The notes beneath the pieces are model-generated. The model was not told the origin of the DNA. It saw only the letters and a program-made list of their open reading frames with translations, and ran no database searches. A stretch of 64,000 nucleotides of DNA from assembly GCA_026413945.1 (NCBI GenBank), contig JAOAJX010000003.1:1-64000 (forward strand), read 5' to 3'. Shown here piece by piece: positions 2,615 through 29,248 of the stretch (the stretch's first letter is position 1; each line of letters starts with the position of its first letter). Position numbers and translations under genes: made by a program. Source of the stretch: Candidatus Iainarchaeum sp. (GTDB taxonomy: Archaea; Iainarchaeota; Iainarchaeia; Iainarchaeales; DTGL01).

Positions 2615-4522
2615 TTGAGGAAAAAGGAAATAAAAAAAAGCCAGGAGGAAGAACCAAGCATTATTCTTCCACTGAAGCCAAAAGAAGAATCGTCAACAGA
2701 AGAAAAACCTCACGTTACTCTAACCCATCAACTTGAAACGAAAGAGCAAAAGAAAAAGAATTACTCTGAGAACATGCGCGAGCTCATCACCACGCCGGTT
2801 GACTCTTTAATTGATATTCTCAAGGTTAAAAAAACCGCATCCTTAAATGAACTTTCAGCTAAGTTAGGCCTTAGCATTGATGCCGTTGAAAGCATAGGCA
2901 GAATTCTTGAGAGATCCAGCGTTGTGAAGCTTATTTACCCAACTTCGGTTATAAAGCGCCCAAAAATTGTGCTTCTCACCCTTATAACTGAACAAAAAAT
3001 CTTTACATTTGATGGCAAAAAAGTTGAGGAAAAAAAGCTTTTAGTTGATAATGTGCCGGTTCTCGTTGAAATAGTGCGTTCCAATGAAGATCGTATGCTT
3101 TACTACAACCTACTTCCGCCAACCTTCAGGCCTTATACAAAAATCTTTCTTGAGGAAATAAAGAACAAGATTGTTGAGCACGTGCCTGTTGAGGTTTCCG
3201 AGATAACAGATACTAAGAAAAGCATAGAACTTAAGAAAAGATACTTTGATGAAGCCAAAAAGGTTCTCCGAGAATACTTTGGCTCAGATACTACACTTCA
3301 GGACATCCTTGCAGGTTTGCTGCTGCATGAGATGTATGGCCTTGGCATAATTGAGCTAATAATGGGTGACAATGATCTCGAAGAGGTTGCAATAAACTCT
3401 TCTAAAACACAAATTACTGTTTACCACAAAGAATATGGCTGGATGAGGACAAACATCATGCCAATTTCCGAAGAAGCAATAGCTAACTATGCTTCCCAAA
3501 TTGCAAGAAAGGTTGGCAGGGAAATAACAACACTAAATCCTTTGTTAGATGCGCACATAATCACTGGCGACAGAGTGCATGCTTCTTTATTCCCAATATC
3601 CTCTTTTGGAAATACAATAACAATAAGGCGTTTTGCTAGAAGGCCTTGGACTATAGTTGATTTAATTGGCGTAAGGCATACGCTCAGCATAGAAATGGCA
3701 TCTTTGCTTTGGCTCGCCATGCAATACGAGATGAGCATGCTTGTTGCAGGTGGCACTGCTTCAGGAAAGACTGCTATGCTCAATGCACTTTGCGTTTTCA
3801 TGCCACCATATCATAGAATTATTTCAATAGAAGATGTTCGGGAAATAATGCTTCCAAGCTACCTCCAGTGGAATTGGGTGCCAATGACAACAAGAAACCC
3901 AAACCCAGAAGGGCTCGGAGAAGTTAAGATGCTTGACTTGATGCATGCCTCGCTTAGAATGAGACCTGATCGAATAATCCTCGGCGAAATAAGAAAAAAG
4001 AAGGAAGCAGAGGTTTTATTTGAAGCGTTGCACACAGGCCATAGTGTTTACAGCACACTACACGCAAACTCAGGTCAACAGGTGCTAAGGCGTTTGCTTG
4101 AGCCACCAATATCATTACCACCGCTTGAAGTTGAAGGCCTTGATCTTATCCTTGTGCAGTACAGGGACAGAAAAACTAACAGAAGGCGCAGCTATGAGAT
4201 CTGCGAGATTGAAACAGGAACAACAGGAGCACAATTGCGCATAAACACAATATTCAAATGGTCTCCGAGGACTGACAAATGGGATATGCTTAACAAGCCC
4301 ACAAAACTTGTAGGAAACATTAACTTGCACACAGGCCTGACAGAGCAAGAGATTGCTGAAGACCTTGATGGGAGAGCTCATATTTTGGAATGGATGTTAA
4401 ACCACAATATAAGCGACATAAACCAAGTTGGAAACATAATGAAAGCATTTTACGCTAACCCCGAAGAGATTTTAGAGGCAGCGAAGCAGAATAAAAAACC
4501 AGCAATTTTTTTGGAGGCGTAA
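2615..4522 (+). CDS. Type II/IV secretion system ATPase (TadA/GspE/ArlI family), locus 1
   Basis: Product of 635 residues; the TTG start at 2615 has AAAAGGTG at 2601-2608. The first 50 residues are charged and probably disordered. Residues about 60-115 look like a winged helix-turn-helix. The ATPase core follows, with Walker A G-G-T-A-S-G-K-T at 379-386, a Walker B-like R-I-I-L-G-E-I near 452, and a histidine box T-G-H-S...T-L-H-A-N near 475. These are the hallmarks of the PilT/VirB11-like ATPases that power pilus assembly or archaellum rotation in the cytoplasm. It directly precedes two membrane platform genes with which it should form the motor. It differs from the second ATPase (20944) in its amino-terminal region. 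Confidence 0.93.
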   Translation: MRKKEIKKSQEEEPSIILPLKPKEESSTEEKPHVTLTHQLETKEQKKKNYSENMRELITTPVDSLIDILKVKKTASLNELSAKLGLSIDAVESIGRILERSSVVKLIYPTSVIKRPKIVLLTLITEQKIFTFDGKKVEEKKLLVDNVPVLVEIVRSNEDRMLYYNLLPPTFRPYTKIFLEEIKNKIVEHVPVEVSEITDTKKSIELKKRYFDEAKKVLREYFGSDTTLQDILAGLLLHEMYGLGIIELIMGDNDLEEVAINSSKTQITVYHKEYGWMRTNIMPISEEAIANYASQIARKVGREITTLNPLLDAHIITGDRVHASLFPISSFGNTITIRRFARRPWTIVDLIGVRHTLSIEMASLLWLAMQYEMSMLVAGGTASGKTAMLNALCVFMPPYHRIISIEDVREIMLPSYLQWNWVPMTTRNPNPEGLGEVKMLDLMHASLRMRPDRIILGEIRKKKEAEVLFEALHTGHSVYSTLHANSGQQVLRRLLEPPISLPPLEVEGLDLILVQYRDRKTNRRRSYEICEIETGTTGAQLRINTIFKWSPRTDKWDMLNKPTKLVGNINLHTGLTEQEIAEDLDGRAHILEWMLNHNISDINQVGNIMKAFYANPEEILEAAKQNKKPAIFLEA

Positions 4523-4523
4523 G

Positions 4524-5414
4524 ATGCGTGTAAAGTTCATGCTTTTCTCGATTGAGCGCGCAAACAGGATTAATAGGCGTTTTCTATGGATTGGTGAAAA
4601 GCTCAGCGACCTTTTTTATTCCCTCAAATATGATTTGCACCTTGCTGGCATCAAAATTGATCCAGAAAAATATTTGACCGCGGCTTTTTTTTCCGCACTC
4701 ACTTATTTTGCAATATTCTTTGCACTTTTTTCAGCACTCTTCTTTGCAAGATCGCAGCAGCTTGATGGCTCATTGTTTCTAAATGCACTTTTCTTTGGAC
4801 TCATCTTTGGTTTTGTATTCTTTTTATTGCATGTTTTCTACCCGCGAATAATAGCAAAAAACCTCGCAAGAACTATTGATAACAACCTCCTTTTTGCAGT
4901 AAAATCCATGTATGTCCAAGTTTGCTCAGGTATAAGCCTTTATAACACCTTGGTTTACGTTGCAAAGTCCGGTTATGTTGGTGTCTCAGAAGAATTTGAA
5001 TATGTTGTGAAAGAGATCAATTCCGGTGAGTCAGAGGCAAAAGCACTTGAAAAAATGGCTATAAAGACGAGCTCTGAGCATCTCAAAAAAACCTGTTGGC
5101 AGCTGCTTAGTGCAATAAGAAGCGGTGCCTCTGTTAAAGGTGCTTTGCAATCAATTGTTGCAATGCTTGTAAAAGAGCAAGAAAGAGCAATTAGAGACTA
5201 TTCCTCTGAACTTAATGTTTGGGTTTTAATGTATATGCTATTCGCAGCAGCAATACCAAGCTTAGGCCTTACCTTCATAGTGATACTTTCTTCACTTGCG
5301 GGTGCTTCAATAGGCCAACACACAATCGTATTTATAATAATGGTTTCATTTGCGATACAGCTCTCTATAATCGGCTTTGTTAAAAGTCGTATTCCGAAGG
5401 TGTTTTTAACTTGA
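4524..5414 (+). CDS. Type IV pilus platform protein, TadC/GspF-like (first of two)
   Basis: Product of 296 residues; the ATG at 4524 follows GGAGG and sits 1 base after the ATPase stop. There is a paired hydrophobic segment at about residues 50-115 and another near 235-290, separated by a cytoplasmic helical region containing the G-I-S-L-Y-N-T-L and A-L-E-K-M-A stretches typical of GspF/TadC domains. The family sits in the membrane under the pilus and is driven by the TadA-type ATPase. In locus 1 the two platform halves are separate genes; in locus 2 they are fused. Confidence 0.85.
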   Translation: MRVKFMLFSIERANRINRRFLWIGEKLSDLFYSLKYDLHLAGIKIDPEKYLTAAFFSALTYFAIFFALFSALFFARSQQLDGSLFLNALFFGLIFGFVFFLLHVFYPRIIAKNLARTIDNNLLFAVKSMYVQVCSGISLYNTLVYVAKSGYVGVSEEFEYVVKEINSGESEAKALEKMAIKTSSEHLKKTCWQLLSAIRSGASVKGALQSIVAMLVKEQERAIRDYSSELNVWVLMYMLFAAAIPSLGLTFIVILSSLAGASIGQHTIVFIIMVSFAIQLSIIGFVKSRIPKVFLT

Positions 5415-6463
5415 ATGGAAATATTTCAAAATCCATTGAGCGCCTATACAAGAGGATTTGCTTAGGTCTAAGCCGAACTATTCCTCTAAAAACTAGGCAA
5501 AGGGTATTATATCAAATGCTAACTTATGCAGGAATAAAAGGCGACTTCGACTTTTACATTGGGAGAAAGCTCTTTCTTGCAATACTTCTATCACTTATCT
5601 CCTTCCTTTTACCCATAACTGTTTTGAGCGGGATTTTTTTAACAATGTTTCCGCATGAGCTTATCTACCCAACCGCTTTGCTTATTGGCATAATTTCCTT
5701 TTGCATCATAGCAGTTATATATCAATTAATGCTATATTATAAGATAGATTCAAGGGCAAACCTCGTTGACAAAATTCTGCCAGATTTCCTCCTTCTTGTA
5801 TCAAATAACATAAGGGCAGGCATGGTGCCTTTTTTCGCATTTAGGAGTGCGGCAAGAGAAGAATTTGGCCCTTTAGCTGAAGAAATCAAAATTGCCACTT
5901 CAAAATCACTTGGTACTGAATCATTTACTGAAGCTCTAAAGACACTTTCTGAGAGGATTGATTCAGAGAATCTTAAGCAAATGGTGCCTTTCATGATACA
6001 ATCACTTCGTGCTGGGGGCAAAATTGCTGAGCTTCTTGAGACCTCTGCAGAAGATATGAGAGAGACGCAAGAACTTAAAAAGGCACTTATATCCGGCACA
6101 AAAATGTACGAGATGTTTCTCCTTTTCATCGTTGTTATCATGACACCTTTGCTTCTTTCCGTTTCCGTTATTTTCCTCGAACTTCTTTCCAATATGCAGA
6201 CAGATATAGCACGAGACACAAGCGGTTCATTTAATCTTGGCTTTCTTTCTTCAAGCATAAGCATTCAGCCGGCTTTTATGAATATTGCAGCATACCTGCT
6301 AATATTTGGAAATTCGCTCTTTGCAGGTGCATTCATAGGTGTGATTTCAAGAGGCAAGGCAAAATTTGGCCTTAAATATTTCCCTGCAATATTTTTGGTT
6401 TCAGCAGTGATTTTCTTCTTCGCAAGAATTTTCCTTAGAGGCCTTCTTTTAGCATCGTATTAG
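5411..6463 (+). CDS. Type IV pilus platform protein, TadC/GspF-like (second of two)
   Basis: Product of 350 residues. The TTG start at 5411 overlaps the previous stop by 4 bases, with AAGGTG at 5397-5402. It has paired membrane helices near residues 50-115 and two or three near 230-350, around a cytoplasmic domain with the typical G-M-V-P-F-F-A-F and S-L-R-A-G-G-K-I-A-E-L-L stretches of the GspF/TadC fold. With the preceding gene and the ATPase it forms the core of pilus machine 1. Its 3' end overlaps the convergent KaiC-like gene by 4 bases. Confidence 0.85.
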   Translation: MNGNISKSIERLYKRICLGLSRTIPLKTRQRVLYQMLTYAGIKGDFDFYIGRKLFLAILLSLISFLLPITVLSGIFLTMFPHELIYPTALLIGIISFCIIAVIYQLMLYYKIDSRANLVDKILPDFLLLVSNNIRAGMVPFFAFRSAAREEFGPLAEEIKIATSKSLGTESFTEALKTLSERIDSENLKQMVPFMIQSLRAGGKIAELLETSAEDMRETQELKKALISGTKMYEMFLLFIVVIMTPLLLSVSVIFLELLSNMQTDIARDTSGSFNLGFLSSSISIQPAFMNIAAYLLIFGNSLFAGAFIGVISRGKAKFGLKYFPAIFLVSAVIFFFARIFLRGLLLASY

Positions 6464-7014
6464 AGCTTTATAACCTTGTCCACAATTATAGAGATCTTGT
6501 TTATAAGCTCAGCTTCAGCTTCTTCCTCAATAGATATTAAGGCCATTGATATGCCCCAATTCCTTGCTTGGTTTATTATGAAATGAGTAAACTTAGCGAT
6601 TGTGCTTATGTCGTTGTGTATCGTGAGTGTAGTCAAGCTATCCACAAAAAGCATTTTGCTTTTTTCAGGCATATTCTTTACAAAATTCGTTATTGCTATG
6701 CTCATGTTTGTAAGATCTCTGGGTGTCTCAAGAAAAATAACCTTTTCAATCCTCTGTGGCGAAGAAACCCTTCCAGAAACGCAGTCAATATACCAAATCT
6801 TTTCGGTTTTTACTTTTGCGTTTTCTAGTATCTTATTTACAAGACGTGCCGGCTTGTTTGCTGCGACATATATGCAGCCCATCTTATTCATGTTTATGAA
6901 ATAATAAAGAATTTCATTATTTATATCAACGTAGTCTTTGGCAGGCACTATAAATAACGTTATCTGGTCTTCAGCTATTGAAGAAAAGTCGATCTTTTTT
7001 GCCACCAAAACCAC
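6460..7014 (-). CDS. Degenerate KaiC/RecA-fold protein lacking Walker A
   Basis: Product of 184 residues. The overall pattern resembles KaiC/RadA-like proteins (DUF835/DUF7504-like): an I-Y-V-A-A-N-K-P strand, W-Y-I-D-C-V-S-G, a Walker B-like M-L-F-V-D-S-L-T-T-L near residue 120, and a final I-S-I-I-V-D-K-V-I-K-L strand. The place of the P-loop reads F-I-V-P-A-K-D-Y with no G-K-S/T, so ATP hydrolysis is unlikely. The GTG at 7014 is used; an in-frame GTG at 7005 is also possible. It lies tail-to-tail with the second platform gene of pilus machine 1 and 3 bases after two small membrane protein genes. A regulatory role analogous to ArlH/FlaH is conceivable but unproven. Confidence 0.6.
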   Translation of the reverse strand: MVLVAKKIDFSSIAEDQITLFIVPAKDYVDINNEILYYFINMNKMGCIYVAANKPARLVNKILENAKVKTEKIWYIDCVSGRVSSPQRIEKVIFLETPRDLTNMSIAITNFVKNMPEKSKMLFVDSLTTLTIHNDISTIAKFTHFIINQARNWGISMALISIEEEAEAELINKISIIVDKVIKL

Positions 7015-9337: not shown

Positions 9338-11512
9338 ATGCAAAAAAAGGAGCTGAAACTGAGGGTTCAAGATGCGGATCCAGCGCATGTTGGAAGGAAT
9401 ATAGTTACGCTTGATTCAAAACTTAGAGAAGCGCTCGGGATAAGCAGTGGTGACATTGTAGAAATAAAAGGTGCGAGAACTACTGCAGCAATTGTTTGGC
9501 CCGCTCGGGCTGAAGATGAAGGCAAGGAAATAATACGCATGGACGGCTTTATAAGGCATAACGCAGGAATAGGCCTCAATGATACTGTAATTGTGAGAGC
9601 TGCTGATTACAAAGAAGCACAGGAAGTAGTGCTTGCGCCAACACAGCGCATAAGAATTATTGCTTCTAGCTACAACAAGATTCTTAAAAGGACTTTTCTT
9701 GGGAGGCCTCTTTGCCAAGGTGATAGCGTATGGATAAGTGTCTTTGGCTCCGGATTTGTTTATAAGGTAACTGGCACCAAGCCAAGAGGTATTGTGAAAG
9801 TAACAGAGCTCACGGAATTTGTGCTTAAGGAAAAGCCAGCGAAAGAAGTTCCAGAAGGAATACCGACAGTTGCCTATGAAGATATAGGTGGCTTAAAAGA
9901 GCAAGTCATGAAAATAAGGGAAATGGTTGAGCTCCCAATGAGACACCCAGAGCTTTTTAGGCGCCTTGGCATAATACCACCGAAAGGGGTTTTGCTTTAT
10001 GGCCCTCCAGGTACGGGAAAAACTCTTCTGGCAAAAGCGGTTGCAAACGAAACAAACGCAAACTTCATAAGCGTAAATGCTCCAAGCATTATGAGCAAAT
10101 ATGTTGGTGAAGCCGAAGAGCGAATAAGGCGCATATTCAAGGAAGCAGAGGAAAATGCCCCGAGCATAATATTCATAGATGAAATTGATGCAATTGCACC
10201 TAAGAGAGATGAAGTAATAGGTGAAGTCGAAAGAAGAGTTGTTGCGCAGCTTTTGGCAATGATGGATGGCCTTGAAGCAAGAGGCAATGTAATTGTGATG
10301 GCAGCAACAAACCGTGTTAATTCCTTAGATGAAGCATTGCGCAGACCAGGGCGTTTTGATCGTGAGATTGAGTTTGGCATACCTGATAGGATGGAACGCA
10401 AGGAAATATTGCAGATACACACAAGAGGCATGCCTTTGGCAAAAGATGTCGATCTTGAGCAACTAGCTTCAATAACTCACGGTTTTGTCGGTGCCGATTT
10501 AGAAGCGCTTACAAAAGAAGCAGCAATGAAAGCTCTAAGGAGATACTTACCAAAGATAAACCTAGATGAAGATGAGATTCCTGCCGAAATACTCGAAAGC
10601 TTAGAGGTAAGAGCTGAAGATTTTATGGAAGCCCTTAAGGATGTACAGCCAAGTGCTTTGAGAGAAATTGCTGTGCAAATACCTAAGGTAAAATGGAGTG
10701 ATATTGGTGGCCTAGAAAACGTAAAAGAAGAACTTAAACAAGCAGTTGAATGGCCTCTTAAATATCCTGACCTTTTCAAAGAAATGGGCATAAAGCCAGC
10801 AAAAGGAATATTGCTTTACGGTCCTCCGGGCACGGGAAAAACTCTTCTGGCAAAGGCTGTTGCAAATGAGAGCGAAGCAAACTTCATTGCAGTGAAAGGC
10901 CCTGAGCTTCTCTCCATGTATGTTGGTGAAAGTGAGCGCGGTATAAGAAAAATCTTCAGGAAAGCGAGGCAGGTTGCTCCAGCAATAGTTTTCTTTGATG
11001 AGATTGATGCAATAGCATCAGAACGTGGAGAACATCTAGATTCTGGCGTAAGCAACAGGGTTTTGAATCAATTGCTTACTGAATTAGATGGGACTGAAAT
11101 ACTGCAGAATGTTGTATTCATTTGTGCAACAAATAGGCCCGATCTTGTGGACAAAGCGTTGCTTAGACCTGGGCGCGTAGACCGGCTCATAGAAGTGCCC
11201 GTGCCTGACATCAAAGCAAGGACAAGAATACTTGAAATACATACTAAAGCGGTGCCTCTTGCTCAAGACGTTTCAATCAAGGAGCTTGCAGAGGTAACTG
11301 AAAACTTCAGCGGTGCCGATCTTGAAAACTTAGTTAGGGAGGCAACTCTTATTGCAATAAAAGAAAACAAAATGAAAAAATGCTTAGTATCTATGAAGCA
11401 CTTTGAAAAAGCTTTGGCTAAGGTAAAGCCATCAATAACTGAAAACACAAAGAAAGCTTATGAAGACTTCAAAATAAAGGCATCCGAGTTCTCGCCAAGC
11501 TATGTGCGCTAA
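9338..11512 (+). CDS. cdc48: CDC48/VCP-type AAA+ ATPase
   Basis: Product of 724 residues, the usual length for archaeal CDC48/VAT. The amino-terminal substrate and cofactor domain spans about 1-180 (double-psi barrel start, V-G-R-N-I-V-T-L-D). D1 has Walker A G-P-P-G-T-G-K-T at 222-229 and Walker B I-I-F-I-D-E-I-D near 277; D2 has Walker A at 495-502 and V-F-F-D-E-I-D near 550. Both domains keep the R-P-G-R-F/V-D arginine-finger stretch. It unfolds proteins in the cytoplasm, in archaea often feeding the 20S proteasome. The carboxyl end S-P-S-Y-V-R is not the canonical HbYX but matches the end of the PAC2-family protein at 62002-62787. ATG with TAGGTGG upstream. Confidence 0.97.
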
Positions 11513-19724: not shown

Positions 19725-20354
19725 ATGGACCCAAAGATTGAATCCGTTAAGAATAAGATTGGCGGTGTTGAAAGCTCTCTTGCAATTATATCGCAATCAA
19801 AGCAGAAAAATCTCTCAGAAGTAAATGCCAATCTGAACTTTCTAGTTGGACAACTCGAGAATTTGCGTGTTGAGCTTGATAATCTGGACAAGACAATAGT
19901 GCTTGGCTCACCGCTCACAGAATATAGTGAAAATGTTGAGAAACTCACCTCCATCGAAGAAACAATAAACAGCGTTGAATCAAAGTTCGAATTGGCAATT
20001 GAAAAAATAGCCGAAATCAGAAAGGATCAGGAAGTTCTGAAAAACCTTTTACAGGAAGGTATCTCCGAAAAACAGGTCCAACTTCTTGAATCAAGAATAA
20101 AAAATATTGAAGAGCTTCAAGAGAAACTCATGAGCTCAAAATCAACAAAAATACTTGTAGAGCTTGTGGAAATAATAGATGAGCTTAATCACAGATTAAA
20201 AAGAATAGAAGAGCTTTTCAAGATAGGCAAGATTTCAGAGGCACAAGTAACGCAATATTCACCTCAGTACTCACTGCCTTATCCACAGCAGCCAGTGCCA
20301 CAGCAACAGCCTTCAAAGCCAGTTGGTGGACTTAAATGGATTTTTAAGCGTTAA
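19725..20354 (+). CDS. Cytoplasmic coiled-coil protein of pilus locus 2
   Basis: Product of 209 residues. Residues 1-165 are almost entirely heptad-like coiled coil with no membrane segment. Residues about 170-198 are rich in Pro, Gln, Tyr and Ser. The end is basic, K-W-I-F-K-R. First gene of the second pilus operon, 5 bases before another coiled-coil gene. Archaellum operons place cytoplasmic coiled-coil proteins (ArlC/D/E) before the ATPase in a similar way; this is an analogy of position and shape only, no sequence family was recognised. Confidence 0.65.
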   Translation: MDPKIESVKNKIGGVESSLAIISQSKQKNLSEVNANLNFLVGQLENLRVELDNLDKTIVLGSPLTEYSENVEKLTSIEETINSVESKFELAIEKIAEIRKDQEVLKNLLQEGISEKQVQLLESRIKNIEELQEKLMSSKSTKILVELVEIIDELNHRLKRIEELFKIGKISEAQVTQYSPQYSLPYPQQPVPQQQPSKPVGGLKWIFKR

Positions 20355-20359
20355 AGTGA

Positions 20360-20944
20360 ATGAAAATGTCAGATGAGAAAGCAAGGGTAAAATTTTATAA
20401 TCCCAATATCGCAGACTTTGAGCATGTAAGGTTCGATGGCGACCCCATGGTTCTAGAGAAGTGCAGATACATAAGTGCCCAAGTTATTATGCAAAAAGCA
20501 AGGCTTGAAAAGTTAAGAAACGCAATAATCTCAGGAACATCATACTCTGCCATGGAAGTTGAATCTAAGATAAACGAACTTAGCAAGAGAGCAGAAATAC
20601 TTGCTTCAAAATCAAACCTAATATCAACTTCTATAGAAGAATTAGAAGCTGCTGAAAACGATCTAAAAAAACGTGCCTTGTCAGGTGAATTATTACAAAG
20701 GTATACTGCTGTCAGAGAGCAAATAATTCAAATTGAAAAAACATTTGGCGGCCTTGCATCAATACGCGCACCAGATCTCTTTGAATCCATGATGCACGAC
20801 CTTGAAAACATGAACGCAAGGGTAAGGAAAATTGAAGATATCGTGGGAGCAACCGTTGACATTGCTTTAAAAGACCGCTTGGAGCGTGCAAAGAGATATA
20901 TTGATTATTATGGCAAAGAGATTTCTGAAAGAGGTGCACCTTAA
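20360..20944 (+). CDS. Coiled-coil protein preceding the second pilus ATPase
   Basis: Product of 194 residues: a 35-residue amino terminus with K-F-Y-N-P-N-I-A-D-F, then long charged helices predicted as coiled coil, no membrane segment and one cysteine near residue 35. It overlaps the ATPase start by 1 base (TAATG), so translation is coupled. Probably a cytoplasmic partner of the motor; no family was recognised. ATG at 20366 is an alternative start. Confidence 0.65.
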   Translation: MKMSDEKARVKFYNPNIADFEHVRFDGDPMVLEKCRYISAQVIMQKARLEKLRNAIISGTSYSAMEVESKINELSKRAEILASKSNLISTSIEELEAAENDLKKRALSGELLQRYTAVREQIIQIEKTFGGLASIRAPDLFESMMHDLENMNARVRKIEDIVGATVDIALKDRLERAKRYIDYYGKEISERGAP

Positions 20945-22608
20945 TGAAATATATTATCAAAGATTGTAGCAATTGCATAGGCCTCGGAGATAAAAGTTTT
21001 CCAATGTGTGCGCAATGTATCAAGCCACAGAAAGATCTAGAGTTGATAGTTTATAAAAACAAAATTTTTACAAAGCAACAATATCTCAAGGATAATTCTT
21101 ATGTCATATACCCATTTTTTGTTGATTGTCTAATAAAGCCAATTCGCGGCAAAGTGCTCAAGTCTTACAAGATAAAAGATGCGAATGTTAAAATAGTTCA
21201 AGAAGAAGAAAACTTAGAACCAACCTATACTATAACAATACCACATTTGGAGCCAAACATGGAACAGTTACTTTACCTTTATAGGGAATATGAGAGCCAC
21301 GAACTTAAAGATCCTCTTCTTGTGCGTTGGATAAAACAGCATGGCATTCTTGACTATCTTATGTGTGATCCTAAAGTGCAGGAGATAAATATAAACCCAC
21401 CGGAATTTCAAAGCCCTTTTAGAATTGTACATGATGATTTTGATGAGTGCAGGACAAATCTTTATCCTTCAATCGACTTCTTGAATTACCTTGCAACTTA
21501 TTTGAAAATAAACTCTGGTAGGCCTCTTAATAAGGCACAGCCACAGCTTGACGCAGAACTTATCGTTGAAAACCAACGCGCAAGGGTTGCTGCTGTAGTG
21601 CAGCCATTTTCAATTCATGGCATTGGCTATTCAATAAGGCGCCATAGGGAAAAGCCATGGACATTGCCTCTTTTCATAGCTAACAAAACCATAAGCCCAC
21701 TTTTCGCCGGTTTCATGTCATTCATGATCACACATGGAAGAACATTTCTAACAGCTGGGCCTCGTGGCTCCGGAAAAACTTCCTTGCTAAGCGCATGTAT
21801 GCTTGAAATACTTCCAAAGTATAGAATTATAACAATCGAAGATACGCAAGAGCTCCCGATCAACTTCTACAAAGAATATGGCTATGACATACTTTCTTTC
21901 AAGGTTCGCTCAGCATTATCACCTGAAGGCCTTGAGATACCTTTTGAGAAAGGTCTTAGAACATGCTTAAGATTAGGCAATTCATGCTTAATACTTGGCG
22001 AAGTTCGTTCGCAAGAAGCAAAAGTTCTTTACGAAGCGATGCGTGTTGGCGCAATGGCTAATACAGTGGCAGGAACAATACATGCAGACAATCCATATGG
22101 TGTTTTTGACCGTGTTGTTAATGACTTAGGTGTGCCAAAAGGCTCGTTCAAGGTCACAGACTTGATTATAATAATAAAGCAGATTAAATCTCCAACCGGT
22201 CTTTATCATGTTAGGCGTGTTACTCAGGTTGTTGAAGTGCTAAAAGACTGGCAAGATGAGCCAGTTTTCAGAACACTCATGACCTACGACAAAAAAGAAG
22301 ATTCTTTGGTTCCGACACAAGCATTGATTAAAGGAAATTCAGTTACGATTCAGAACATAATGGAAACAAGTATGGAATATGACTCTTATGATAAGGTTTG
22401 GCGCGATATCACGTTGAGAGCCTGGGCAAAGCAGCGCTTTGTTGAGACACTCTCCGTTTTCAAAGAAAAGCTTGAAGGCCCATATGTGCTCAAAGCAAAC
22501 AAATGGTTTGCTGAAGCATTTGAAAAAATAAAGCCATTGCAAAGTGAAGAAGCAGAAAATAAGTTTAAGGAAGAGTATGAGAAACGTCTGCAATTGCTTT
22601 GGAAGTGA
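20944..22608 (+). CDS. Type II/IV secretion system ATPase with N-terminal Cys4 motif, locus 2
   Basis: Product of 554 residues. It opens with C8-x2-C11-x10-C22-x2-C25, a probable zinc-binding knuckle not seen in the locus 1 ATPase. The ATPase core has Walker A G-P-R-G-S-G-K-T at 272-279, the Asp-box I-I-T-I-E-D-T-Q-E-L near 300, Walker B S-C-L-I-L-G-E-V-R near 345, and a histidine box G-T-I-H-A-D-N near 380. It lacks the long charged amino-terminal tail of the other ATPase. It powers the second pilus-like machine together with the fused platform encoded next. ATG at 20944 overlaps the previous stop. Confidence 0.92.
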   Translation: MKYIIKDCSNCIGLGDKSFPMCAQCIKPQKDLELIVYKNKIFTKQQYLKDNSYVIYPFFVDCLIKPIRGKVLKSYKIKDANVKIVQEEENLEPTYTITIPHLEPNMEQLLYLYREYESHELKDPLLVRWIKQHGILDYLMCDPKVQEININPPEFQSPFRIVHDDFDECRTNLYPSIDFLNYLATYLKINSGRPLNKAQPQLDAELIVENQRARVAAVVQPFSIHGIGYSIRRHREKPWTLPLFIANKTISPLFAGFMSFMITHGRTFLTAGPRGSGKTSLLSACMLEILPKYRIITIEDTQELPINFYKEYGYDILSFKVRSALSPEGLEIPFEKGLRTCLRLGNSCLILGEVRSQEAKVLYEAMRVGAMANTVAGTIHADNPYGVFDRVVNDLGVPKGSFKVTDLIIIIKQIKSPTGLYHVRRVTQVVEVLKDWQDEPVFRTLMTYDKKEDSLVPTQALIKGNSVTIQNIMETSMEYDSYDKVWRDITLRAWAKQRFVETLSVFKEKLEGPYVLKANKWFAEAFEKIKPLQSEEAENKFKEEYEKRLQLLWK

Positions 22609-22630: not shown

Positions 22631-24523
22631 ATGTATTTTGATTTTGTTTATAATACTGGAAAGAAAATAAAAATTTTTCCTAAGTCCTCATCTCTTGAAA
22701 ATAAGTTCAAACAAGTCGAATTTCCGTATACTTCAGCGGAGTTTCTTTCAGGGATATTCATTTGGTTTATCATACCTGCTTTTGTTGGAATCTTCTTTTT
22801 TATCATCGGTGCAGCTTCAAAACTTTGGCTTTTTGAGCTTTTTGGATATATTTTCATTTTCACATCAGTTCTTCTTGCAATATCATCTTATCTTTATGGC
22901 GCAAGCATATACTACACCCAAGGCATCATACAACAAAAAGAAGAGATGCTACAAGCATTACTTGAGATGGCGAATTATATAAGCCTAAATACAAGCATAG
23001 AGTTTGCCTTTACTGAGACAGCAAAAGGCCTTACAGGAGTTCTCGGTAAGCAATTTAAGAACATAGTGACAAAATTAGAGCTTCAGCAGTATGCTACACT
23101 TGGTGATGCATTTGAGGATTACATTCCTGTATGGATGGAAATAAATCCCGATTTTGTAAAAGGCCTTACAATTCTTCAGACCGCAAGCTTGGCACCCCTA
23201 AGCGAAAGAGACAACATGCTGAAAGAAGGCATAAAGACAATAATGCAGGGTTATTACACGATGGGCAAGAGAACAACAGAAACGCTTTCAAATCAAGCAA
23301 AGAATCTAGTTTCAGTTGGAGTTATGCTGCCAATGATGTCATTAATACTTTTGCCAATGATGTCAATATTTTTGCCAAACATGATAAATGTCCCTTTGCT
23401 AATATTCATTTATGATATTCTTTGCCCCGCCTTGCTATTGCTGTTTGCAATGAACTTTGCTCTCAATCGTGTGCAAGTAAACACAATTGATTTGTCTTTG
23501 TCCCCTAAATTCAAAAAGATGCCGCAAACAATATACCTATTGTGTATATTGGTTGCGATTATTGTTACCGCATTTGGCTTTAGCCACCTTTTTACAATCG
23601 ACATGAGTTCAAAAGAAGGCATAGAAAGAGAATATAAACTTGAGAGTTTGCTGTATGTATGGCTAATTCCTCTCGGAATCTTTTTAGCAGTTGAGTTATA
23701 TCTTTTTTGTTATATCAAGCTCAATGAAAAAATATGGCTTGAAATGCGCGAAGTTGAAGATGATATACCACACCTTCTTCAGGTGGTTAGTAGTTACCTT
23801 GTCCTTAACAGACCTATGGAAAGCATAATCGAGGATGTAAAAGAAGATTACATTAGGCATGGCTTTAAGAGGCATGCTGTTGTTAAAATATTTAGTGAAA
23901 TAACTGATGCACTTTACAATACAAAGAAGACGCTTATTGATTTTGTAAACACTACTCTGCCAGAAATAGTTGCTTCGAAACGTCTCATCCAGATATTTAG
24001 GCGCTTAATACATTTCTCAGAAACAGATATAAAAAATGCAGCAAAGGCAGCAAAGATGATAAGAAGCCACACCCTTTCAATCTTCAGACTTGATAATTAT
24101 ATGCAGACGCTTCTGAGCGATACAAGTGCAACCATCGAATTATCAGGTAAAATACTCGCCCCAATACTCGCGGCAACCGCAATAATAATGGCAGTAGCAA
24201 TTGTGATGGCTTTGGAATATATAATAGGACTTATTGAAGGTGTTGGAAAAGCTTTTGGTATACAAATTTCTTTGCAGCTTGTTGATGTTTCAGCCATAAT
24301 ACCACCAACTGTTGTTTTGGTTATAGTTGGCATATACTTAATACTTACAATGATAGTTTTGAGCTTATTTCTCGCAAATGTTAAATATGGTACAGATCGC
24401 TACAAAATAGGTAAGACAATCTTCAATAATCTACTTGTCGGCTTTTTGATATTCAGTGCGCTTTTCTTTATTGGTGTTATGTTGTTTACAACCTTTATAT
24501 TTAAGGGGGTGCTTGTAAAATGA
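22631..24523 (+). CDS. Fused double TadC/GspF-like platform protein
   Basis: Product of 630 residues with two consecutive platform units: helices near 45-95 and 220-285, then again near 300-320, 335-360, 520-560 and 570-625, with two cytoplasmic helical regions between. Its length equals the sum of the two separate platform proteins of locus 1 (296 and 350 residues), so this is a fusion of the same pair. Conserved-looking stretches include L-L-E-M-A-N-Y-I-S-L-N-T-S and P-H-L-L-Q-V-V-S-S-Y-L. It would form the membrane base for machine 2. ATG at 22631; the stop overlaps a 30-residue peptide gene. Confidence 0.85.
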   Translation: MYFDFVYNTGKKIKIFPKSSSLENKFKQVEFPYTSAEFLSGIFIWFIIPAFVGIFFFIIGAASKLWLFELFGYIFIFTSVLLAISSYLYGASIYYTQGIIQQKEEMLQALLEMANYISLNTSIEFAFTETAKGLTGVLGKQFKNIVTKLELQQYATLGDAFEDYIPVWMEINPDFVKGLTILQTASLAPLSERDNMLKEGIKTIMQGYYTMGKRTTETLSNQAKNLVSVGVMLPMMSLILLPMMSIFLPNMINVPLLIFIYDILCPALLLLFAMNFALNRVQVNTIDLSLSPKFKKMPQTIYLLCILVAIIVTAFGFSHLFTIDMSSKEGIEREYKLESLLYVWLIPLGIFLAVELYLFCYIKLNEKIWLEMREVEDDIPHLLQVVSSYLVLNRPMESIIEDVKEDYIRHGFKRHAVVKIFSEITDALYNTKKTLIDFVNTTLPEIVASKRLIQIFRRLIHFSETDIKNAAKAAKMIRSHTLSIFRLDNYMQTLLSDTSATIELSGKILAPILAATAIIMAVAIVMALEYIIGLIEGVGKAFGIQISLQLVDVSAIIPPTVVLVIVGIYLILTMIVLSLFLANVKYGTDRYKIGKTIFNNLLVGFLIFSALFFIGVMLFTTFIFKGVLVK

Positions 24524-24612
24524 GCAAGACAAGCTGGCAAATAATTGAGGTTATATTGGGCCTTGCCGCAATAGGTATCATACTTATGTATGTTTTTTCA
24601 GCATTGAAGTAG
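24520..24612 (+). CDS. 30-residue single-helix membrane peptide
   Basis: The ATG at 24520 overlaps the platform stop as ATGA, and the frame runs M-S-K-T-S-W-Q-I-I-E-V-I followed by a hydrophobic stretch to S-A-L-K and TAG. The platform gene's last codons hold AAGGGGGTG at the right distance (24503-24511). The peptide is one membrane helix with Glu near the start, similar to a bare class III pilin helix without a leader. The next gene begins 8 bases later. Its coupling to both neighbours argues that it is translated. Confidence 0.6.
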   Translation: MSKTSWQIIEVILGLAAIGIILMYVFSALK

Positions 24613-24620
24613 GTGTTTTT

Positions 24621-25043
24621 ATGCAAGCGATAGAAGTTGTAATATTTTTTATTTTTGCCTTTTCAGTAGGTATGCTGGTGTTAGCATATATTGTGGGCAT
24701 TGATTTCACAGGTCTCCAAAAATCAATCACTTGCCTTTTCATACCTGATAGCTGCAAAGAAGCAATCCATAGCATTCAATATCAGCAGTTTTTCATTGAA
24801 ATTTCTAAATGCTGGAGATCATGTGCTTTCGGAGCCAGGGATGTCAATTGTGGGGTTTACAATGTAAAAACCGAAAAAGTAACGGGCGAAACATTTGACC
24901 TGAATGCTTTAAGAGCATACTTTAAAAAGAACAAGGTTTGTGAGGATTGCAACATACTTATAAAGAATGAGCCATTGGTTTTTCCAGCAATTGTTGAGCT
25001 TTCATGCTCAGATGACCTAAACAGCATATTTATTTCAAACTGA
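24621..25043 (+). CDS. Pilin-like cysteine-rich protein of locus 2
   Basis: Product of 140 residues: M-Q-A-I-E-V-V-I-F and a hydrophobic helix in the first 27 residues, then an outside domain with about eight cysteines (S-K-C-W-R-S-C, V-C-E-D-C among them). ATG at 24621 follows AGGTG. Same architecture as the four minus-strand proteins at 17824-19596. Last gene before the AT-rich gap that precedes the surface-protein genes. Likely minor pilin or pilus accessory protein. Confidence 0.62.
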   Translation: MQAIEVVIFFIFAFSVGMLVLAYIVGIDFTGLQKSITCLFIPDSCKEAIHSIQYQQFFIEISKCWRSCAFGARDVNCGVYNVKTEKVTGETFDLNALRAYFKKNKVCEDCNILIKNEPLVFPAIVELSCSDDLNSIFISN

Positions 25044-25120: not shown

Positions 25121-25870
25121 ATGAATAAGAAAAAAAATATGCTTATTTTTCTCATAGCAGTGTTTTTAATTAGCCAGGCATATTCGGAGGATATAAAAGT
25201 AATAAGCGCCTCAATCTATTATGATGCCAATTGTGTGACTGTTAAACTAGTTGAGTTAAAGGCAATTTATGGTTATGTCAGTGCTGAAGAGTTTCCAGGT
25301 AATGCCACACTTTTTCTCTTGGCTGATAATGGGCAAGAACTTTATAAAGGTAGGTTTGGCTTTATAGAGCCAATGCTTGTAGTAAGCCCACCAAGGGCAG
25401 ATGTTGACCCTAAAGCAAATGTTAGCAGCGGAGTGATTTATGCAAACGATACGATAAAGCAAATATTCTTGCCCTACTTTGAACAAGCGTCTAAGATTAA
25501 AATTGTTTTTGATAGCAACAAGGAGTTTGTTTTTGATATAAAAGAGCGTCTCTGTAACAAAAATTCGATATGTGAAAAAGAAGAAAGCGCAATATCTTGT
25601 TCAGATTGCAAGCCAAATGAGAAAGATGATTTTTGTGTTTTTTATTCTGATGGCATATGCGATCCCGATTGCTTAATAGGTGTTGACTCTGATTGCCTAA
25701 AAACTACTCCTAAAAAAACTCCAACCATACAAGAGACACCAGCACAATCACCTAAAGTGCGCACTGATGAGCATAGCTATAGCTCGATAACAATTATATA
25801 CGTTTTTATAGCGGCATTAGTGCTAATAGTAGTTGCTGTGCTATATATAAAAAGAAAAAAGGGTGATTAG
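25121..25870 (+). CDS. Cys-rich cell-surface protein, membrane anchored
   Basis: Product of 249 residues. A signal peptide covers about 1-22 (basic start, hydrophobic core, S-Q-A-Y-S-E). A beta-rich domain to about 140 follows. Then an eight-cysteine module contains S-I-C-E-K-E-E...S-C-S-D-C and D-G-I-C-D-P-D-C, a pattern common in archaeal surface proteins. A Thr/Pro-rich stalk and a carboxyl-terminal membrane helix with K-R-K-K-G-D complete it. It is coupled to the VWA protein gene by an 8-base overlap. Function unknown; probably displayed with its neighbours. Confidence 0.68.
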   Translation: MNKKKNMLIFLIAVFLISQAYSEDIKVISASIYYDANCVTVKLVELKAIYGYVSAEEFPGNATLFLLADNGQELYKGRFGFIEPMLVVSPPRADVDPKANVSSGVIYANDTIKQIFLPYFEQASKIKIVFDSNKEFVFDIKERLCNKNSICEKEESAISCSDCKPNEKDDFCVFYSDGICDPDCLIGVDSDCLKTTPKKTPTIQETPAQSPKVRTDEHSYSSITIIYVFIAALVLIVVAVLYIKRKKGD

Positions 25871-28034
25871 AATAGCCGACACCTCACAAGTGGTATCTGC
25901 TGCAATCGTAGTTGGACTTTTCTTTGTTGCACTTTTTGCCGTTGAAATAAGCAGATACCAACATGTTGCTCAACAGACAAAAGAAATGGAAACTTATTCT
26001 GAAGAAAAGCGCTTTGAAGAAAGCTTTGATGCTCTGCTTAAAATGACAGAGCCAAGGACAAAGGAAACTATAGGCGAGTTATTTGCAAACTGCGCTTACT
26101 ATGGCGCTGATGATAGAAACTATGGGGGAATAATTGTTAATTGCCGCGATGTGTTAGAAGAGCTTTTCGATAGCTTTTATGGGCGTGAAAATTATTACGC
26201 AAAAATTCCGCAGCACAGCAGTGAGATAACGAAGGGGATTGAAATTTACTTCATCGTTGATACTTCAAAAAGTATGACTGATGACATTAGCAAGATAGGT
26301 CAATCAGTTATTTACATAAAAAATAATTTTACAGGTGACGTTAACTTTCACATATATACACTTGCATCTGTAATGACTGTCCCACAGTGTTCAATGCCAA
26401 ATGTCGAATGCAAGGTAATTCCAGCTTCCGATCTAAGTGAGCTTTGCAAGCAGGCAGGAATACCACCAGAGCACTGTGTTCTTCAGGAAGCTTATGGTTT
26501 GGGGGTTGCATGGGTTGCTCAAAATATTCCAATTGATTCAAATAACATTCGCATTTTAATTCCGCTTTCTGATGAACTTTCTTGCTCTGACGAGTTTATA
26601 TCTCAAGGCACTTCTTATGGTGGTAAAGCTTATGCTGACAAGAGCATTGATTTTGGGATAAGTGTAGCAAAAAACCACAAAAACTTTTATGTTTATCCAA
26701 TCCTATGTGACCCCTTAAATGTTAACAACCCAGGTCAAATTCGACAAATTCACGATGAAAATGCAATAATTGAAGATATGAATAGGTTGGCAAATTCACT
26801 CAAAGGTGAGTTTATTGACTTTTCTAAGGGTTACTCGCAGGCGAAACTCGATATATTGCTTGAAAAAATAATTTTTGGCTCAACCACCAAGCGAGAAGGC
26901 CTTATCGAAATTGGTACAAAAAAAGAACGTGCTGAGCGCTACTCATATGACCGCACAGTAATAATGCCTAGCAAAAAACCAGCTCATTTTACATTATGGG
27001 TTTACAAAGAACGTGTTCCACATCAGATGAAGACTGTTGTTGTCAAGATGCCACCGATAGCCATAATAAATGCAGATCCCAGAGTTTTAGCTCAAGAGCC
27101 TTATACTACAACCCTTGATGGTTCAGCATCTTATGACCCAGATGGTGGCACAATAGTATCATATGAATGGGATTTAAATGGTAAAATTCTGAGTACACAA
27201 CCAAAATTTACACATACTTTTTCGGAGCCGGGGCAATATAAAATTAAGCTAACTGTTACAGATGACGAAGGGCAAAAGGGTTCTACAACCATTACAATAT
27301 TTGTTGGCAAAAAACCAACTTTTAATTTCATCTTTGTTCCGGTAAACTGGTCAGGTTCAAATGCAAGTTTCGAATCTACTGCGATGGCACATTTCAATTT
27401 CTTCGTTAAAGGCGCAAAACTCGATGATTGTAAGGATAATTACTCCATTATTATAATGTCTCCAGAATCTCATAATTGCCAGGTTTCGTTGCTAAACAAT
27501 TGCATGAGGGAAGGAATGCGCTTCGATGTCTTCAACCAAATTGTTAAATGCGTACAAAACGCTGGTTACAGTATAAATTGGACAAGCATGCGCATAGTCG
27601 CAATTACGAAAAGCGATATATGTTTCTATATTCCACATGCTGAATATGCAATAATTGGCTTTACTGAGTTTGGATCCTATCCTACAGTTTGCGAAGCTCG
27701 TTATAATGAATGTTCTGCTCATGAATTAGGTCATCAATTCTACTTTTGTGAGCAGTATTATCAGAATTCATGGCTGTCTCAGAATTCCCGGCTTTCTTCA
27801 ATAGGGGGATGCAAAAACAAATATCCTGATGGTACAAACCATTGTCAACAATATGGTTCTCTTACAACAAATTGTCCTGAATATCTTGGCAGAATACCTG
27901 ATTGTCTAGGTAGGAAAATACCTGTTGGTGGCTCGGTTGGAAGGAGCCTAATGGGTCCAGGCGGTATCTCAGCACCAAGGCTCTTTGACTGCTTTGAAGA
28001 ACCAGTTATAAGGAGTGCATTGAAATGTCAGTAA
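25863..28034 (+). CDS. VWA-PKD-metalloprotease surface protein, possible pilus tip protein
   Basis: Product of about 720 residues. A single hydrophobic helix lies near residues 8-28 with no cleavable leader. A von Willebrand A region starts near 125 with the metal site D-T-S-K-S (D133) and a later I-P-L-S-D-E strand. A PKD domain at about 398-483 has D-G-S-A-S-Y-D-P-D-G-G and Y-E-W-D. A zinc protease motif H-E-L-G-H (620-624) with Cys residues around it follows. The GTG at 25863 lies inside GGGTGAT, and an in-frame ATA at 25872 is better spaced; see findings. VWA plus an amino-terminal anchor next to pilus genes recalls PilY1/PilC-type tip adhesins, an inference. Confidence 0.72.
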   Translation: MIRIADTSQVVSAAIVVGLFFVALFAVEISRYQHVAQQTKEMETYSEEKRFEESFDALLKMTEPRTKETIGELFANCAYYGADDRNYGGIIVNCRDVLEELFDSFYGRENYYAKIPQHSSEITKGIEIYFIVDTSKSMTDDISKIGQSVIYIKNNFTGDVNFHIYTLASVMTVPQCSMPNVECKVIPASDLSELCKQAGIPPEHCVLQEAYGLGVAWVAQNIPIDSNNIRILIPLSDELSCSDEFISQGTSYGGKAYADKSIDFGISVAKNHKNFYVYPILCDPLNVNNPGQIRQIHDENAIIEDMNRLANSLKGEFIDFSKGYSQAKLDILLEKIIFGSTTKREGLIEIGTKKERAERYSYDRTVIMPSKKPAHFTLWVYKERVPHQMKTVVVKMPPIAIINADPRVLAQEPYTTTLDGSASYDPDGGTIVSYEWDLNGKILSTQPKFTHTFSEPGQYKIKLTVTDDEGQKGSTTITIFVGKKPTFNFIFVPVNWSGSNASFESTAMAHFNFFVKGAKLDDCKDNYSIIIMSPESHNCQVSLLNNCMREGMRFDVFNQIVKCVQNAGYSINWTSMRIVAITKSDICFYIPHAEYAIIGFTEFGSYPTVCEARYNECSAHELGHQFYFCEQYYQNSWLSQNSRLSSIGGCKNKYPDGTNHCQQYGSLTTNCPEYLGRIPDCLGRKIPVGGSVGRSLMGPGGISAPRLFDCFEEPVIRSALKCQ

Positions 28035-29248
28035 GTTTTTTGAATTTTAAAATAGGCCAAAAAGGAAATATTTTGGCTTTTATTGTAATTGCCATACTCT
28101 CACTTGTTTTTATACTTGTGCTTACAAGGCATGAGCCTCTAAGAATTCCGAAGGACATAAACACTGAAACAAAAGTGGAAACCATAACAATGGAAAACAT
28201 AGTTCGTTCGGTAAGGCAAAGCATACAAAACTTTTCAAAAGAGGGCCTCTCTACGCAATCAAGTCTTTGGGTTTGCAATATTTTTATGCCACCGGTTGCA
28301 AACGAAATTGATACCAATGGATCTTTTTTTATAAGCAAAGAACTTGGTGGTTGCTTAAGAAGAATAACCGAAGATCTTGGATATGGATATAATACCGATT
28401 TCAATGTATCACTCGGCTTGTATGATGGCAATAGTATGCAAGAACAACTTGACAAAATGATGTCTCTCCCAAACGATCGCGTTGATGTGAATGTTTCTTT
28501 TGTTGTAGCCGGAGCCAAAATTGAAAGCGGTGAAAGAAGGTTTTCAAATAACTATGCTCTATCTTACCCCTATCGAACATGGCATGCTTACAAAAAATAC
28601 CTTGAGTGGGGGCAGAATTACTTATCAATACTTGGCCTAGATATCTGCGAAGAATTAAGGAAAGCAAAAGGGCCTTGCCTGTTTGTCGGCAAAGCGGATC
28701 CAACATATCACATACTCACAACCGATGACTATGTTAGATCTAAAATAGATCTCAACGATGTGAATATTGACAACGCACTTAATAAGCAGCTCGACTATCT
28801 GAACCAAATAATGAACCCAATAAGTTTTGAGTGCGAATACGAAAAGATTTCTGAAAAGAAAGACCTTGCGATAAGCAGGGATCAGAATTGTGTTACTCCA
28901 CGTTGTTCAGGTATCCAAATTATTGAGTATGATGTTCCGGGAGCCTGCGGAACACAAGAAGAAAGACATGGCACAGCATGTCCACCAAGAGAAGCTCTCG
29001 GTCCATGGGTGGCACCGCCAATGGGCACAGTTGAGCGCAATTACACGAAGTCCTGCACTGCAGGACAATGCAAAATAGAAATAGTTGGTGCAAACCCATA
29101 CGTAGCCTTTAGTGTAAAATTCAGATGCAAAGATACAACTAGAAGCATTTCCATGGAGCAAGGCGTGGAACCTTACACCTTACAAATAGGCGTTTATGCT
29201 AATATTGTGCGTGTTTGCCCACCAGTTTCAATACCTCTTGAAAAATAA
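28025..29248 (+). CDS. Membrane-anchored surface protein, unknown
   Basis: Product of 407 residues. G-Q-K-G-N-I-L-A-F near residues 11-19 precedes one hydrophobic helix, so it may be processed like a pilin or act as a signal anchor. The outside part is over 350 residues with about twelve cysteines, including two long C-x-G-T and C-P-P-R segments. No enzyme motif was seen. It overlaps the VWA gene by 10 bases and ends the surface operon. Presumably it works with the VWA protein. Confidence 0.65.
   Translation: MSVSFLNFKIGQKGNILAFIVIAILSLVFILVLTRHEPLRIPKDINTETKVETITMENIVRSVRQSIQNFSKEGLSTQSSLWVCNIFMPPVANEIDTNGSFFISKELGGCLRRITEDLGYGYNTDFNVSLGLYDGNSMQEQLDKMMSLPNDRVDVNVSFVVAGAKIESGERRFSNNYALSYPYRTWHAYKKYLEWGQNYLSILGLDICEELRKAKGPCLFVGKADPTYHILTTDDYVRSKIDLNDVNIDNALNKQLDYLNQIMNPISFECEYEKISEKKDLAISRDQNCVTPRCSGIQIIEYDVPGACGTQEERHGTACPPREALGPWVAPPMGTVERNYTKSCTAGQCKIEIVGANPYVAFSVKFRCKDTTRSISMEQGVEPYTLQIGVYANIVRVCPPVSIPLEK

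What the first reader, a model, noticed from the sequence alone, without database searches (positions are those of the whole stretch)
25863..28034. VWA, PKD and HExxH protease joined in one pilus-linked surface protein
The order is an anchor helix, a VWA region with D-T-S-K-S, a PKD domain and a metalloprotease with H-E-L-G-H, in an operon right after pilus machine 2. Bacterial pilus tip proteins PilY1/PilC use VWA domains; a protease at the carboxyl end is unusual. In an episymbiotic archaeon such a protein could bind and open a host surface. The host-attack idea is speculation.
Basis: partly seen in the sequence, partly recalled or inferred. Interest (0 to 1): 0.62.

Follow-up and report, generated by a model that had tools for sequence, protein, structure and literature searches.

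The report
Protease grafted onto archaeal pilus protein
In a small-genome archaeon, one gene in a pilus-building operon joins a membrane anchor, an adhesion-type domain, a spacer and a complete-looking zinc protease; relatives show that the protease was added to an older pilus protein together with a separate partner gene, which suggests (but does not prove) a pilus machine that can cut proteins on surfaces it touches.

Summary
Window 25863-28034 encodes 723 aa: an N-terminal anchor helix and stem, a divergent VWA-like domain (DTSKS 133-137), a clear PKD domain (Pfam E 6e-15) and a C-terminal metzincin-like protease. The domain fits no Pfam or NCBIfam family; weak hits are mostly to metzincins. 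The gene lies inside pilus operon 2. Across 87 genomes of the phylum, that machine's TadC occurs in six or seven. Where the locus is readable, a VWA-stem gene sits beside the 28025-type subunit without protease (G055, G016), with PKD but no protease (G033), or with PKD and protease (G000, G004). So the protease is a lineage-specific graft on a TadG/CpaL-like subunit, not a PilY1 protein. The gene just upstream (25121-25870) is its partner: the pair recurs with nearly every relative, and a bacterial relative carries both in one polypeptide. Protease activity, place on the filament and target are untested; 'host attack' and 'episymbiont' remain speculation. Both AlphaFold jobs failed (no allowed alignment).

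The parts
25863..28034 (+). Whole gene: anchor + stem + VWA-like + PKD + metzincin-like protease (723 aa); start may be 25872
25884..25949 (+). N-terminal anchor helix, pilin-like in position, without a class III (K/R)-G cleavage motif
   Evidence: hydropathy; reading of the sequence
25950..26213 (+). Stem region conserved in the VWA proteins of other families (ends ...FDSFYGRENYYAKI)
26232..26897 (+). VWA-like domain; DTSKS at 26259-26273, S-D-E at 26568-26576
27054..27308 (+). PKD domain
   Evidence: Pfam PF18911 E 6e-15
27318..28031 (+). Metzincin-like protease domain, no named family
27720..27752 (+). Zinc-binding motif HELGHQFYFCE (His620, Glu621, His624, third ligand Glu630)
27945..27956 (+). 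Met-turn SLMG (Met697)
25121..25870 (+). Partner gene: signal peptide, beta-domain, Cys-rich stretch (25550-25696), C-terminal TM (from ~25787)
20944..22608 (+). Pilus/archaellum-type ATPase of machine 2
   Evidence: Pfam T2SSE 2.9e-16; NCBIfam archaellum ATPase 1.2e-32, TadA-type 3.1e-30
22631..24523 (+). TadC/FlaJ-like membrane platform of machine 2 (no Pfam hit above cut-off; named from context and TM pattern)
24521..24613 (+). Unannotated 30-aa membrane peptide, same place in six genomes
24621..25043 (+). Small pilin-like subunit (MQAIE...)
28025..29248 (+). Large pilin-like subunit with QKG class III-like motif
19725..20354 (+). Coiled-coil protein at the head of the operon
20360..20944 (+). 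Second coiled-coil protein of the operon

Best explanation
The protein is a TadG/CpaL-like, N-terminally anchored VWA subunit of an archaeal type IV pilus-like machine onto which a PKD spacer and a zinc metzincin protease were grafted in this lineage. Shown: domain order, complete metzincin signature, conserved place in the machine-2 locus, protease-free homologues in the same locus of other families, and a conserved adjacent partner that is fused to the protease in other lineages. Inferred: the anchor sits in the membrane or is taken into the filament; the VWA-like domain binds or senses a surface; the PKD holds the protease away from the cell; the partner is a constitutive second half of the enzyme (split-off C-terminal domain) that folds or anchors it; and the zinc protease cuts proteins at the contact site. 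The substrate (own S-layer or pilins, environmental protein, another cell) is unknown.
For: Third ligand and Met-turn conserved across paralogues, with Asp/Glu/His exchange in the ligand column. Machine-2 TadC in 6-7 of 87 phylum genomes, not in same-genus G001-G003, which also lack the VWA-stem part and 28025. Syntenic VWA-stem + 28025 pair in G055, G016 and G033; G033 ends after a PKD-like domain (contig ends overlap by 150 bases). In G006 one copy lies on stem+PKD and a second lies downstream of the 28025-like subunit and a Pro-rich linker. In G050 (another family) the protease is on a KRG pilin-like stalk beside its partner and two VWA proteins. The four pilus-linked protease domains group together, moderate support 80/96. 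Partner adjacent in nearly every case; single polypeptide in Chloroflexota G187; hhalign of the partner beta-domain against the fused domain of other families E 7.8e-9, controls 0.03.
Against: No activity or localisation data. The anchor lacks a prepilin cleavage motif and the partner has its own TM anchor, which favours a membrane-bound complex over a pilus tip. The VWA call is sub-threshold in Pfam. The Gly of HExxHxxG is Tyr here. Neither AlphaFold job gave a usable model (pLDDT 31 and 34).
Confidence: 0.6

Rival explanations
1. A cell-surface protease that merely shares the operon: it stays in the membrane with its partner and works in nutrition or envelope turnover, without entering a filament.
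For: Partner with its own C-terminal TM; sister genomes keep paralogues on other scaffolds in loci without pilus genes in view, some next to a Glucosaminidase-like region (sub-threshold E 8e-5).
Against: The N-terminal half is a conserved subunit of the machine-2 locus in other families, and the protease joined pilin-like scaffolds in three arrangements (G000/G004, G006, G050).
Confidence: 0.25
2. A processing protease of the machine: it trims or releases pilins or S-layer so that the filament can emerge.
For: Encoded within the operon, with start and stop codons overlapping those of its neighbours.
Against: The same machine in G055, G016 and G033 has the VWA subunit without a protease, so assembly does not need it.
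Confidence: 0.1
3. A catalytically dead protease domain used only as an adhesin.
For: The Gly after HExxH is replaced by Tyr; Glu as third ligand is less usual than His or Asp.
Against: All catalytic and structural signature residues are kept, and relatives use Asp, Glu or His at the ligand position. D-to-E exchange at that position is also described in another zincin family (PMC3890501), though without shown activity.
Confidence: 0.05

Closest known systems
TadG/CpaL VWA minor pilins of bacterial Tad pili (PMC12607857)
   Same: N-terminal membrane helix carrying an extracellular VWA domain, encoded with a TadA/TadC-type machine; proposed place at the pilus tip
   Different: CpaL ends with the VWA domain and has a predicted prepilin cleavage site; here PKD and a zinc protease follow and no such site is seen
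Modular pilins of bacterial type IV pili (PMC8179133)
   Same: A functional module grafted on a pilin; VWA is one of the common modules, and one listed architecture has a predicted peptidase module (IPR030392)
   Different: Bacterial survey; IPR030392 is, from memory, an intramolecular-chaperone (S74-type) autoprotease, not a metzincin; no VWA + PKD + metzincin is mentioned in the passages read
Metzincins: M7 snapalysin, M12B reprolysin-like, M6
   Same: HExxHxxGxxD/H pattern and Met-turn; nearest sub-threshold profiles
   Different: No hit reaches any curated cut-off; own conserved C-terminal motif (Phe-Asp-Cys-Phe-Glu) and own partner protein
PilY1/PilC pilus tip adhesins
   Different: No PilC beta-propeller profile hit; anchored by an N-terminal helix
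Kil (Tad) pili with exchangeable tips of Myxococcus (PMC12075869)
   Same: Analogy only: variable modules on minor pilins of a Tad-type machine serve contact-dependent action on other cells
   Different: No homology tested; no protease module reported in the passages read

Membership tests
Metzincin (Met-zincin) metallopeptidases | HExxH with catalytic Glu | tested here: met
   HELGH 620-624, invariant in the aligned homologues apart from the third, variable position
Metzincin (Met-zincin) metallopeptidases | Third zinc ligand at HExxHxxGxx(H/D) | tested here: met
   Glu630; Asp, Glu or His in relatives; some paralogues have one more residue of spacing. The Gly is Tyr in this protein.
Metzincin (Met-zincin) metallopeptidases | Met-turn downstream | tested here: met
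   SLMG, Met697; S-x-M invariant in 8 homologues
Metzincin (Met-zincin) metallopeptidases | Metzincin fold | tested here: inconclusive
   AlphaFold model pLDDT 31
Metzincin (Met-zincin) metallopeptidases | Zinc-dependent proteolysis | not testable with these tools
   no experiment
Named families M6, M7, M12B, M64, M8 | Profile match at curated cut-off | tested here: not met
   best E about 1e-4, all below cut-off
TadG/CpaL VWA minor pilins | N-terminal membrane helix with VWA on the outside | tested here: met
   helix; VWA-like domain sub-threshold but consistent; topology inferred
TadG/CpaL VWA minor pilins | Genetic linkage to TadA/TadC-type machine | tested here: met
TadG/CpaL VWA minor pilins | Sequence match to the family (TadE/Tad/TadG profiles) | tested here: not met
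   no such profile hit; so 'works like', not 'is'
Type IV pilins | Class III signal peptide (K/R-G cleavage site) | tested here: not met
   absent in this protein, present in 28025 and in the nearby pilins
PilY1/PilC | C-terminal PilC beta-propeller | tested here: not met
   no such Pfam hit
VWA domain | Metal site DxSxS...T...D | tested here: inconclusive
   DTSKS and S-D-E present, Thr not evident; DxSxS degenerate in some homologues

The most novel reading that the evidence does not exclude
A contact protease system: in this archaeal family a T4P-like machine carries an interchangeable metzincin warhead with a dedicated membrane partner, grafted on more than one pilus subunit, to cut the surface proteins of neighbouring cells during attachment.
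Probability: 0.25. Interest if true: 0.8.

Novelty: new variant of a known kind. Interest (0 to 1): 0.52.

Why it matters
How small-genome archaea attach to and act on other surfaces is largely unknown. Here the series of relatives (VWA; VWA+PKD; VWA+PKD+protease) gives a concrete case of an enzyme being recruited to an archaeal pilus machine, with a single residue (Glu621) whose change would test whether cutting matters. The protease-partner pair is an undescribed two-part surface enzyme, shared with Chloroflexota, that annotation libraries miss.

Tried and rejected
Structure prediction: protease domain with one bacterial homologue (pLDDT 31) and VWA alone (pLDDT 34) were both unusable; no fold search was made on them. 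Homologues from whole-genome loci were not sent to the folding tool because its stated rule lists other sources. Viral contigs and plasmids gave nothing useful. The scan of named genomes gave only one Anaerolineales MAG, so the organism could not be named. PilY1/PilC membership rejected. The idea that the protease is a core part of the pilus machine was rejected, because the machine has it only in one family. The idea that the Cys-rich tail alone marks the partner was rejected: G000:C15 114 kb and G011 have the tail on another domain, without a metzincin neighbour. No paper describing this fusion was found in the held library; that library lacks most subscription journals.

Full report
1. The observation. 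The frame from 25863 to 28034 gives 723 residues. The N-terminus holds the only strong hydrophobic stretch. Residues 124-345 look like a divergent VWA domain: DTSKS at 133-137, a later S-D-E at 236, Pfam hits below cut-off, but when five homologues are scanned the families that appear are all VWA types. A profile of these homologues against solved structures has mostly integrin beta VWA domains at its head, not significant (E 0.1). PKD at 398-482 is certain (E 6e-15). The last 240 residues form one conserved domain.

2. The protease. In eight homologues the invariant columns include His-Glu-x-Gly-His, a later Asn-x-Tyr-Pro, Ser-x-Met and Phe-Asp-Cys-Phe-Glu. The third-ligand position is Glu630 here and in several relatives, Asp in most, His in G050. 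A Met-turn (SLMG) follows 75 residues after the first His. Some paralogues have one more residue between the second His and the Asp. Weak profile hits are mostly metzincins: M12B, M7, M8, M64, M6, M66, and snapalysin among solved structures at E 0.25, behind an unrelated hit at 0.03. None reaches a curated cut-off. I read it as a metzincin-like family without a name. D-to-E exchange at the same position is described for another zincin family (PMC3890501).

3. The surroundings. The operon runs from coiled-coil genes (19725, 20360) through an ATPase of the archaellum/TadA type (20944), a TadC-like platform (22631), a 30-aa membrane peptide (24521), a small pilin-like protein (24621), the partner (25121), this gene, and a large pilin-like protein (28025). 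Start and stop codons overlap from 25121 to 28025.

4. Distribution. The TadC of this machine is found in 6 of 87 genomes of the phylum, plus one weak hit. G001-G003, of the same genus, lack it, lack 28025 and show no match to the anchor/VWA part, but they do have the protease on other scaffolds. G055 has the full locus with an anchored VWA protein of 647 aa and no HExxH. G016 has an anchored VWA protein of 645 aa beside the 28025 homologue, with the ATPase and TadC further along the same contig. In G033 the gene lies across two contig ends that overlap by 150 bases; it runs VWA, PKD-like, stop. G004 has the complete fusion at 59% identity. G006 has stem, PKD and protease without most of the VWA, and a second protease behind the 28025 homologue and a Pro-rich linker, in another frame. 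The ATPase and partner genes of that contig are frame-broken too, so sequence error is as likely as decay. The order VWA, VWA+PKD, VWA+PKD+protease is a reading of present-day genomes, not a dated history. A tree groups the four pilus-linked protease domains with moderate support (80/96); long branches make its deeper parts unreliable.

5. The partner. The gene at 25121 codes for a signal peptide, a beta-domain, a Cys-rich stretch and a C-terminal membrane helix. Homologues lie next to the protease gene in nearly all cases seen in the window's family, and in G050, G032, G038 and G058. In G187 (Chloroflexota) protease, beta-domain and Cys-rich stretch are one polypeptide. In the proteins of G052, G055, G057, G019, G029 and G035 a domain behind the protease matches the partner beta-domain (hhalign E 7.8e-9, probability 96; unrelated control 0.03). 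In an Anaerolineales MAG a small lipoprotein gene next to the protease matches weakly (E 8e-4). The partner is therefore best seen as a split-off domain of the enzyme rather than an inhibitor. This is inference.

6. Mechanism. Best model: an anchored VWA subunit presents a zinc protease at the cell surface or on the filament, with the partner as its second half. Shown are the anatomy, conservation and genetic linkage. Not shown are activity, place and target. The second membrane anchor on the partner argues for the base or envelope; the VWA minor-pilin analogy (CpaL, PMC12607857; PilB, PMC8179133) argues for the tip. I cannot decide.

7. Known kinds. Modular pilins with VWA domains are well known in bacteria, and one survey lists a peptidase module (PMC8179133). 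VWA proteins near archaeal T4P loci are known, discussed mainly as possible regulators (PMC4858521). Highly divergent pilus loci in DPANN archaea have been noted (PMC6393860). I found no description of a VWA-PKD-metzincin fusion or of the protease-partner pair. Hence: new variant of a known kind.

8. Limits. Genomes are mostly draft, so absence of a gene is weak evidence for any single genome. Counts depend on the 87 genomes held.

Noticed in passing
window 24521-24613 (+): Conserved 30-aa membrane peptide (MSKTSWQIIEVILGLAAIGIILMYVFSALK) between TadC and 24621, same place in G004, G006, G033, G055 and G016; possibly a mini-pilin.
   Followed up: partly
window 25863-25875: The start codon may be ATA at 25872: homologues begin at that codon and a GGTGATT ribosome-binding-type motif lies over the GTG at 25863.
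   Followed up: partly
L039:5114-8161, L040:9692-12664, L041:7941-10937: In sister genomes the same protease domain follows a Glucosaminidase-like region (Pfam E 8e-5 in one, 1.8e-4 in another, below cut-off; third by sequence likeness), suggesting a two-enzyme surface protein.
   Followed up: partly
L038:1649-3035, 5701-6600, 9451-9800: G006 contig C76 has reading-frame breaks in ATPase, partner and the 28025-protease junction; probably sequence errors.
   Followed up: partly
G000:C15:114017-114268 (L093:5940-6695): A second Cys-rich-tailed membrane protein in the window's genome, beside an 800-aa surface protein, without metzincin; same pair in G011.
   Followed up: no
window 2615-6463 (+): A separate TadA/TadB/TadC-type pilus machine with its own pilin-like genes upstream.
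   Followed up: no
L077:8911-10518: Chloroflexota relative: protease followed by a TolB-like beta-propeller in one secreted protein, next to a small lipoprotein.
   Followed up: partly
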